DNA of 40,281 bases from Roseiflexus sp. (GTDB lineage Bacteria; Chloroflexota; Chloroflexia; Chloroflexales; Roseiflexaceae), in assembly GCA_025062325.1 (NCBI GenBank), contig JANXAL010000077.1, positions 1 to 40,281 of the forward strand, written 5' to 3'. Position 1 is the first letter of the stretch. Each line of letters begins with the position of its first letter. The notes under the pieces were generated by a model, which had not been told where the DNA came from, did no database searches, and saw only the letters and a list, made by a program, of their open reading frames with translations. The position numbers and the translations under genes are program-made. This document shows positions 1 to 3,330 of the stretch, piece by piece.

Positions 1-1941
1 CCGAATTTTCGGCTCGCAGAAGAGCACTGAAACTCCGGCAGTCGCGCAATGCCGCGCACGCCGGGCGCGAGATTTCCGAATTTTCGGCTCGCAGAAGAGC
101 ACTGAAACTCAGACCCAATCGCGGCGGTTGAGCGATTCGACGAATTTCCGAATTTTCGGCTCGCAGAAGAGCACTGAAACTGCCCGCCCGCTTCCCGGGC
201 GGCGGGGCGGGTCGAAGTATTTCCGAATTTTCGGCTCGCAGAAGAGCACTGAAACCTGACGCATCGGGATGCCGCAGGCGTCTTTCACGCAGATTTCCGA
301 ATTTTCGGCTCGCAGAAGAGCACTGAAACCTCGTAGCGCCCCGAAGCGGCCAATCGACCGATTTGAATTTCCGAATTTTCGGCTCGCAGAAGAGCACTGA
401 AACGGGGGCAGACAGAATACGAGAGCGTCGATTTGCACCCATTTCCGAATTTTCGGCTCGCAGAAGAGCACTGAAACTTGCATGATTGGAGGGAGACAAT
501 GGATGATGGCACAATTTCCGAATTTTCGGCTCGCAGAAGAGCACTGAAACGCGATTTTTGCGATTTTTATCGCAATTACCGCGGCGATTTCCGAATTTTC
601 GGCTCGCAGAAGAGCACTGAAACGATGGCGACAGTCGCGGCGCGGGCGGCAAGCAACCAGATTTCCGAATTTTCGGCTCGCAGAAGAGCACTGAAACCTC
701 GTGTTTTACTCGGCCACGGTCGTCATCGCTGCGATTTCCGAATTTTCGGCTCGCAGAAGAGCACTGAAACCTGACGCTTCGGGATGCCGCAAGCGTTTTT
801 CCCGAAATTTCCGAATTTTCGGCTCGCAGAAGAGCACTGAAACCAGCGGTATCTCCAGATTTCGCCAAACAGTGGCAAAATTTCCGAATTTTCGGCTCGC
901 AGAAGAGCACTGAAACTGGACTGCAGCGCGTACTTGCGCGCAATGCGCGCAAATTTCCGAATTTTCGGCTCGCAGAAGAGCACTGAAACGGGAAGGCTGG
1001 CAACTGGCGCTCTCGGCGGCTGGGATTTCCGAATTTTCGGCTCGCAGAAGAGCACTGAAACCTTCCAGGCAGGATATGCACACCCATCCGCATTCCGATT
1101 TCCGAATTTTCGGCTCGCAGAAGAGCACTGAAACGATTGTGAACTGGCAGGGGGGGATGATTGCGGATCGATTTCCGAATTTTCGGCTCGCAGAAGAGCA
1201 CTGAAACGTCAGGCAGAGGGATGAACTGGAGGAGGAACATGTTGAAATTTCCGAATTTTCGGCTCGCAGAAGAGCACTGAAACTTCACCCGAACGCGCCG
1301 CGTGTAGGTCTCCGCCCACCATTTCCGAATTTTCGGCTCGCAGAAGAGCACTGAAACTATGCGCGGTCGTTGTTCATGAATGTTCTCGCGTCAAATTTCC
1401 GAATTTTCGGCTCGCAGAAGAGCACTGAAACATTCTTGATCATCTTCCTGGAGCGCCGTCCACAGCATTTCCGAATTTTCGGCTCGCAGAAGAGCACTGA
1501 AACTTTCAGGGTCTCAATGGCGCACTGAAGCCGTTGACATTTCCGAATTTTCGGCTCGCAGAAGAGCACTGAAACTATAACGACGCCGCGCGTACTGATA
1601 GCGCCCCCAGAATTTCCGAATTTTCGGCTCGCAGAAGAGCACTGAAACCTCGTCATCCTCGTCTCCCTCCTCCTCCTCCGCGAGGATTTCCGAATTTTCG
1701 GCTCGCAGAAGAGCACTGAAACCTGCCGCAATCGCTGTGCGGCGACGAGATTGGGATATTTCCGAATTTTCGGCTCGCAGAAGAGCACTGAAACCTTGTG
1801 TTCTACGCGGCCACGGTCGTCATCGCGGCAGATTTCCGAATTTTCGGCTCGCAGAAGAGCACTGAAACGGGTAACGACCCTCGCTGATCACGATCTGGCG
1901 ACCCATTTCCGAATTTTCGGCTCGCAGAAGAGTACTAATGG
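1..1941 (+). CRISPR. CRISPR array, leader-distal part, 26 spacers
   Basis: A 37-nt direct repeat (begins ATTTCCGAATTTTCGG, ends GAGCACTGAAAC) recurs every 72-76 nt. The first copy is cut by the window edge (1-33); 25 intact copies start at 72, 144, 219, 293, 367, 441, 514, 587, 661, 734, 807, 880, 953, 1025, 1098, 1171, 1247, 1321, 1395, 1467, 1539, 1612, 1686, 1758 and 1832. A last copy at 1905-1941 is degenerate at its 3' end. The 26 spacers are 35-39 nt. Each repeat holds a CCGAA-TT-TTCGG stem and ends in ACTGAAAC, the usual form of a crRNA 5' handle. Decay at the right end and the GAAAC terminus say that transcription runs along the plus strand and that the leader lies left of the window. 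No cas gene is present, so the subtype cannot be assigned from here. Confidence 0.98.
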
Positions 1942-2325: not shown

Positions 2326-2630
2326 CCTCGCCAAGCCCTCACGCGCCTCGACTGCGCTGAACCATATGCGCTCCATTTCTGCGCAGCGCCCAGGCGCCCT
2401 TTTGCGCCTTTCGGAGCGCCGTACAACCCGGGCGCGTTGCCGCTTTGCCCCAACCCTCTCGCTCCCTCGTGGCGACGATCATTGAGCAGCAACGCGGCAA
2501 CCGGACACACTGCTGTCAGGTTCTGCACTTGTTCATTCACTCCTCTCAATCAAAGCGTGAGAGGCGGATTTTTCCGGCAAGCTCTCGCCTTGAATTGCCC
2601 GCGATAGTGGACACCGCAATGCTCTCCTCT
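2326..2630. other. Intergenic, no recognised feature
   Basis: About 300 bases between the decayed CRISPR tail and the palindromic repeat cluster. Short open frames exist on both strands, but none has a ribosome binding site or a recognisable protein sequence. A possible further degenerate repeat around 2326-2362 (ends CTGAAC) is too weak to call. Confidence 0.5.
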
Positions 2631-3330
2631 CGCGCAGTACGGGATGAGGGGCAGGGGAATGAGGGGCAAAAGAGCGTCAGGACGCTCTTGCCCCCTTCTC
2701 CCCCGGTGAGAGCAGGGGACGGGGGGATGAGGGGGAAAAGAGCCTCAGGACGCTCACTTCCCCTTCTCCCCCGGTGGGAGCAGGGGGCGGGGGGATGAGC
2801 TCACAAGTGTAGTTTTTTCTAGCAATCCCCCCGTGCTGACTATCTGTTTCAGGCATCAGGGCGCCCTAACTCCCCCTTCTCCCCTTGTGGGAGAAGGGGG
2901 TAAGGGGGGATGAGGGGAAAAGGGCGTCAGGATGTGGCAAATCCGCCTCGCACGCCAAGAAGCCTACACGTGAGCGAGTGGGAGCAGAGGGCAGGGGGAA
3001 TGCTTAAAAGGGTAGATTTTTGGGGCAAACCCCTTGTTACATTGCCCTCTTGGAGCGCTGGGATGCGCAAACTCCCCCTTCTCCCCTGGTGGGAGCAGGG
3101 AGCCGGGGGATGAGGATGAAAAGAGCCTCAGGACGTTCGCTCCCCCTTCTCCCTTGGTGGGAGCAGGGGGTGGGGGGATGAGAGGGAAAGAGCCTCAGGG
3201 TGCCCTAACTCCCCCTTCTCCCCTGGTGGGGAAGGGGGTTAGGGGGGATGAGGGGGAACAAGGGCGTTGTAACGCGCAAAACACACACGTCTGTCCAACA
3301 AACCTACCCCTGCGAGGGGGAAACTCCTCC
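2631..3330. repeat. Cluster of MITE-like palindromic repeats
   Basis: At least four partial copies of one module lie here, around 2640-2715, 2716-2800, 2860-2935 and 3060-3260. The module has AAAAGAGCCTCAGGACGCTC at one side, a palindromic core of CCCCCTTCTCCC / GGGAGAAGGGGG, and a run of GGGGGGATGAGGGG. Fragments resembling the inverted ends of the element at 39917-40112 occur at 2802-2822 (CACAAGTGTAG), 3005-3022 (AAGGGTAGATTTTTGG) and 3301-3318 (CCTACCCCTGCGAGGG). No transposase is present, so this looks like a nest of non-autonomous elements or their remnants. It is noncoding. Confidence 0.75.

What the first reader, a model, noticed from the sequence alone, without database searches (positions are those of the whole stretch)
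698..1831. Spacers 10 and 25 are two alleles of one protospacer
Spacer 10 (698-733) and spacer 25 (1795-1831) differ at only 5 of 36 aligned positions (3, 9, 13, 33, 36). In one frame both encode LVFY(S/A)ATVVIAA, and four of the five changes are at third codon positions. This means that both came from diverged copies of a protein-coding viral or plasmid gene, possibly a membrane segment, and that the host took up the same site twice. The copy nearer the presumed leader (10) would be the later one, as in an arms race with an evolving virus.
Basis: partly seen in the sequence, partly recalled or inferred. Interest (0 to 1): 0.72.

Follow-up and report, generated by a model that had tools for sequence, protein, structure and literature searches.

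The report
Same viral site sampled twice
A hot-spring bacterium's immune memory holds two near-identical spacers cut from exactly the same spot in two diverged relatives of one virus or plasmid; a sister species does the same thing with known phages, so this is a clear example of ordinary CRISPR behaviour rather than a new one.

Summary
Spacers 10 and 25 match at 31 of 36 positions, in register, far above chance. A second pair, spacers 4 and 11, is also 31/36 in register.

The leader and repeat place the array with type I-B CRISPR. The leader is on the low-coordinate side, so spacer 10 is newer than 25. The source element was not found in IMG/VR, GTDB r220, phage or plasmid collections, or 158 class-level genomes.

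A sister genome (probably Roseiflexus sp. RS-1) supplied the missing test. Of its 222 I-B spacers, 102 match 17 IMG/VR tailed-phage contigs at 4 or fewer mismatches, about four in five with a 5' CCN PAM. Its allelic spacers match the same site in different phages exactly, share the PAM, and differ inside the site (6/36) about as much as in the flanks (about 18%). The coding frame inferred from spacer differences was an open gene frame in both cases checked.

Two PAM-anchored captures from diverged lineages is therefore strongly supported. A coding source is likely, although this pair alone gives only P about 0.15. The arms-race ordering and the "membrane segment" are not supported. New member of a known kind.

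The parts
698..733 (+). Spacer 10 (36 nt), the newer allele; frame 1 LVFYSATVVIAA
   Evidence: polarity
1795..1831 (+). Spacer 25 (37 nt), the older allele; frame 1 LVFYAATVVIAA
   Evidence: polarity
256..292 (+). Spacer 4 (37 nt), newer member of a second in-register pair (31/36)
771..806 (+). Spacer 11 (36 nt), older member of the second pair
1..1904 (+). CRISPR array, truncated by the contig start: 26 spacers of 35-39 nt, 37-nt repeat ATTTCCGAATTTTCGGCTCGCAGAAGAGCACTGAAAC (25 complete identical copies); leader side is beyond coordinate 1 (contig C63)
1905..2294 (+). Trailer end: decayed repeats spaced about 71-75 nt (one interval 133), marking the old end of the array
   Evidence: families D2 and D3

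Best explanation
The array belongs to the type I-B CRISPR lineage of the genus. Its adaptation machinery cuts prespacers with a fixed 5' end set by a PAM (CCN in the sister species) and a slack 3' end. The host met two lineages of one mobile element, most likely a phage, about 14% diverged at this site, and captured the same PAM-defined site from each, storing first spacer 25 and later spacer 10. Spacers 4 and 11 record the same kind of event at a second site. Shown here: same-site identity, common 5' ends, array polarity, and the whole mechanism in a sister species. Inferred: that the source is a coding region of a phage, that the window's host uses the CCN PAM, and that the two lineages coexisted.
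For: 31/36 in register for two pairs against a shuffled maximum of 6 in score. Leader shared with a Cas8b/Cas7b/Cas5b (I-B) locus of a sister genome. In 260 I-B spacers of the genus nine pairs are in register or off by one; eight share the exact 5' end and seven of those eight differ at the 3' end. Sister spacers: 102 of 222 match one tailed-phage group, 82 of the 102 with CCN. Alleles A19 and B59 are exact matches to the same DNA polymerase site in different phage contigs behind the same CCC; likewise B5 and B43. Divergence inside the A19/B59 site equals that of its flanks. Predicted and real frames agree in two of two cases checked. Pooled codon-phase clustering P=0.0018.
Against: No protospacer for 10/25 or 4/11 was found anywhere. 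Cas8b and Cas3 were not found in the window's own assembly. Two same-site pairs in 26 spacers is more than uniform choice of CC sites on a 30-kb phage predicts (P about 0.003). The inferred orientation is sense to the gene, the minority orientation among the sister's spacers.
Confidence: 0.86

Rival explanations
1. Arms race in one virus lineage: spacer 25 was taken first, the virus escaped by mutation in the protospacer, and primed adaptation re-captured the mutated site as spacer 10.
For: Spacer 10 is on the leader side; one difference of each pair falls in the first 8 positions, the usual type I seed. Escape by protospacer mutation is documented in hot-spring viruses (PMC6452263, PMC2612747).
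Against: Differences are spread over the whole spacer and mostly silent; with five changes a seed change is expected about two times in three. In the sister species both alleles match phages in the collection and the site is no more diverged than its flanks.
Confidence: 0.09
2. Duplication of a repeat-spacer unit inside the array followed by mutation.
For: Exact duplicates do occur in the sister's array B, for example B72/B74.
Against: All 25 complete repeats (925 nt) are identical while the two pairs carry 10 changes in 72 nt; neighbours 9/24 and 11/26 are unrelated; the pairs differ in spacer length.
Confidence: 0.02
3. Both spacers come from two paralogous or repeated copies within one element.
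For: Not excluded, since the source is unknown.
Against: No copy in the host's own genome at three mismatches apart from the array; two separate sites show the same divergence, which two lineages explain more simply.
Confidence: 0.02
4. Errors during spacer capture, for example by the reverse transcriptase encoded next to a cas1 gene on contig C7.
For: The genome has an RT gene beside cas1.
Against: That cas1 is a different one from the I-B cas1; five errors in 36 bases with phase clustering is not expected of copying errors; the sister's alleles match existing phages exactly.
Confidence: 0.01

Closest known systems
Type I-B arrays of a sister genome (G009, 5,801,598 bp; by size Roseiflexus sp. 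RS-1), arrays A (98 spacers) and B (124 spacers)
   Same: Leader, related repeat, 35-40 nt spacers, several allelic same-site pairs with a common 5' end
   Different: Its phages are in IMG/VR and its PAM is readable; the window's spacers match none of them
Hot-spring mat spacers and silent viral variants (Heidelberg et al. 2009, PMC2612747)
   Same: One protospacer of a hot-spring phage gene exists in many variants that are silent or conservative
   Different: There the variants were found in a virome against one spacer; here two variants are stored in one array, and the virome side is missing
Clostridioides difficile type I-B adaptation (PMC8406132)
   Same: 5' CCN motif at acquired protospacers; uneven acquisition along the target
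   Different: Experimental, another phylum; the PAM of the window's own array was not observed

Membership tests
Type I-B CRISPR array | Repeat and leader of a Cas8b-linked I-B array | tested here: met
   Leader aligns with the Cas8b-linked array of the sister genome; repeats 30/37 identical
Type I-B CRISPR array | I-B effector genes (Cas8b, Cas3) in the same genome | tested here: inconclusive
   Not found in the 96.8% complete, 143-contig assembly; contig C29 begins inside the related cas1, where sisters carry the effector genes
Type I-B CRISPR array | 5' PAM next to protospacers | tested here: inconclusive
   Met in the sister (CCN in 82 of 102); no protospacer known for the window's spacers. 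Common 5' ends and slack 3' ends of both window pairs fit
Allelic spacers from one protospacer site | In-register similarity above chance | tested here: met
   31/36 twice, score 21 against shuffled maximum 6
Allelic spacers from one protospacer site | Homologous source sites in diverged elements | tested here: inconclusive
   Found for sister pairs; no source found for the window's pairs
Primed (mismatch-triggered) re-acquisition | New spacers cluster near the site of an imperfectly matching older spacer | not testable with these tools
   Needs the target genome to place the other 22 spacers

The most novel reading that the evidence does not exclude
The I-B system preferentially updates its memory at exactly the site of an older, mismatched spacer, so that same-site pairs arise more often than PAM-limited random sampling allows. 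Two pairs in 26 spacers (P about 0.003 for about 4000 sites) and three seen against 1.1 expected on a sister phage lean that way, but uneven acquisition or a small target would give the same.
Probability: 0.07. Interest if true: 0.7.

Novelty: new member of a known kind. Interest (0 to 1): 0.36.

Why it matters
Allelic spacer pairs are readable without knowing the virus: they give the fixed end of the spacer, a hint of the reading frame, and an estimate of the divergence among the elements a host meets. In the sister species a peptide inferred from such spacers led straight to a group of 17 phage contigs that nearly half of its I-B spacers match, and to the PAM. The same route could find the unknown element behind the window's spacers once suitable viromes are searched.

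Tried and rejected
Exact and peptide-degenerate scans of IMG/VR for 10/25 and 4/11: nothing. A 19-base core gave one contig, rejected as a GC-rich repetitive stretch matching only 24 and 26 bases. A peptide pattern in GTDB r220 gave one gene in three Microcella/Yonghaparkia chromosomes, a hydrophobic protein segment with CAG, not CCN, in front: rejected as coincidence. BLAST of single spacers to phages and plasmids: only partial, chance-level matches. Up to three mismatches in 158 class-level genomes: only the arrays themselves. A 27/37 match of spacer 25 in phage contig G170 is in frame but has no CCN and is within chance. Peptide-level comparison of all window spacers with the sister's phages was no better than shuffled codons. 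One paper search was malformed and one found nothing; one family search failed on a stop codon in the chosen frame.

Full report
THE OBSERVATION. The window begins inside a CRISPR array of 26 spacers (35-39 nt) with a 37-nt repeat, Rfam CRISPR-DR19, 25 complete copies of which are identical. The score of 21 compares with a maximum of 6 in 40 shuffled sets. A second pair, spacers 4 and 11, has the same score, also without offset, with differences at 8, 22, 27, 32 and 35.

CODING SIGNAL OF THE PAIR ITSELF. In frame 1 the pair reads LVFY(S/A)ATVVIAA and four of five changes are third positions. This is weaker than it looks: random placement of five changes gives at most one amino-acid change in the best of six open frames in 17% of trials, and the two window pairs together give P=0.11 for phase clustering. 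Pair 4/11 has two frames with two conservative changes each and cannot be assigned.

WHAT SYSTEM. Contig C63 of the same assembly ends in one copy of the identical repeat, preceded by a leader; the window's other end decays into degenerate repeats, so low-numbered spacers are newer. That C63 joins this array is inferred from the identical repeat. The leader aligns with leaders of arrays in three sister genomes, including one next to a cas locus. That locus (L051) holds Cas8b, Cas7b and Cas5b, with Cas3 and Cas1 found by genome search; a second sister (L055) adds Cas6 and Cas4: subtype I-B. The repeats are 30/37 identical. In the window's own assembly contig C29 starts inside the related cas1 and continues into cas4, but Cas8b and Cas3 were not found; an assembly gap is likely but not proven. 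The genome also has a type III-A locus on C81 and an RT gene beside another cas1 on C7.

ALLELIC PAIRS ARE A HABIT OF THIS ARRAY TYPE. In 260 spacers (26 of the window, 222 from the sister genome G009, 12 from G012) nine pairs overlap in register or off by one: B72/B74, B69/B75, B5/B43, A5/B16, W4/W11, W10/W25, A59/B2 (off by one), A19/B59 and B12/B62 (A and B are the two arrays of G009, W the window). Eight share the exact 5' end; 3' ends differ by 1-3 nt in seven of those eight. So the 5' end is the anchored end, as expected for a 5' PAM. For the five diverged pairs, changes cluster in one codon phase (20 of 28, P=0.0018; the three sister pairs alone P=0.007).

FINDING REAL SOURCES IN THE SISTER SPECIES. 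Spacers A59, B2 and B114 share a peptide, GHLTRFGV, with only silent differences. A degenerate pattern for it drew 17 contigs out of IMG/VR. One of them (G173), annotated as an example, is a tailed phage (terminase, portal, major head protein, tape measure, DNA polymerase by PHROGs). With the full contigs, 49 of 98 array A and 53 of 124 array B spacers have a protospacer with at most four mismatches, 82 of these 102 with 5' CCN; in the first partial set C stood at -3 and at -2 in 73 of 80 each. CCN is a known I-B PAM, for example in Clostridium (PMC8406132, PMC8482600).

THE MECHANISM SEEN DIRECTLY THERE. A19 is exact in contig G169, and B59 is exact in G166, G167 and G173, at one site in the DNA polymerase gene, each behind ACCC. 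B5 is exact in G173, B43 in G167, with the same flank. The frames that the spacer differences predicted for A19/B59 and for A59/B2 are those of a 765-codon and a 167-codon open frame in the phage; the second frame has longer open frames on the other strand, so it is the weaker case. Divergence inside the A19/B59 site (6/36, 17%) equals that of 800 flanking bases (identity 0.82-0.83). So those alleles reflect diverged phage lineages, not escape mutations concentrated on the protospacer. On one 32-kb phage with 4149 CC sites, 95 sister spacers can be placed; 1.1 same-site pairs are expected under uniform choice, three are seen.

BACK TO SPACERS 10 AND 25. By analogy the best reading is two captures of one PAM-defined site from two lineages about 14% apart; pair 4/11 shows the same divergence at another site. 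The source was not found: IMG/VR exact, peptide-degenerate and relaxed patterns, GTDB r220, phages and plasmids, 158 genomes of the class with three mismatches, the 17 phage records and the genus with a PAM-bearing peptide pattern. None of the 26 spacers matches the sister's phages beyond chance, so this host meets other elements. If the PAM is CCN, it would be an in-frame proline codon, and the source protein should read PLVFYxATVVIAA: a prediction, not a finding.

LIMITS. Two same-site pairs in only 26 spacers is more than uniform sampling of a 30-kb phage predicts (P about 0.003 for 4000 sites, 0.04 for 1000), so acquisition is uneven, the target is small, or old spacers guide new ones. The sister genome's name rests on its length (my knowledge of RS-1), not on a database label, and the sampling sites of the phage contigs were not checked.

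VERDICT. Observation confirmed, interpretation partly supported: ordinary CRISPR-virus population biology recorded in one array, a new member of a known kind.

Noticed in passing
L059-L105 (IMG/VR contigs, handles G158-G174): Seventeen contigs of one phage group carry protospacers (at most 4 mismatches) for 102 of 222 type I-B spacers of the sister genome, with a 5' CCN PAM.
   Followed up: partly
G173 (L091, L104): Sister spacers fall about 2:1 on one strand of each phage (61 against 31 sites on G173, whose genes lie mostly on the other strand), so most crRNAs would also pair with mRNA; this fits spacers shared with a type III system.
   Followed up: no
window 256-292 and 771-806: Spacers 4 and 11 are a second in-register pair with the same 31/36 identity as 10 and 25.
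   Followed up: yes
window 478-513 and 1208-1246: Spacers 7 and 17 each contain a purine-rich ribosome-binding-like stretch followed by ATG, as if cut across gene starts in sense orientation.
   Followed up: no
L034:5212-7560 (G000:C7): A reverse transcriptase gene lies directly beside a cas1 gene; its RT profile match is split, with about 110 residues between the two parts.
   Followed up: no
window 2623-3250: Intergenic family of degenerate repeats around CCCCCTTCTCCCCTGGTGGGAGCAGGGGG follows the array; similar copies follow the array remnant on contig C116.
   Followed up: no
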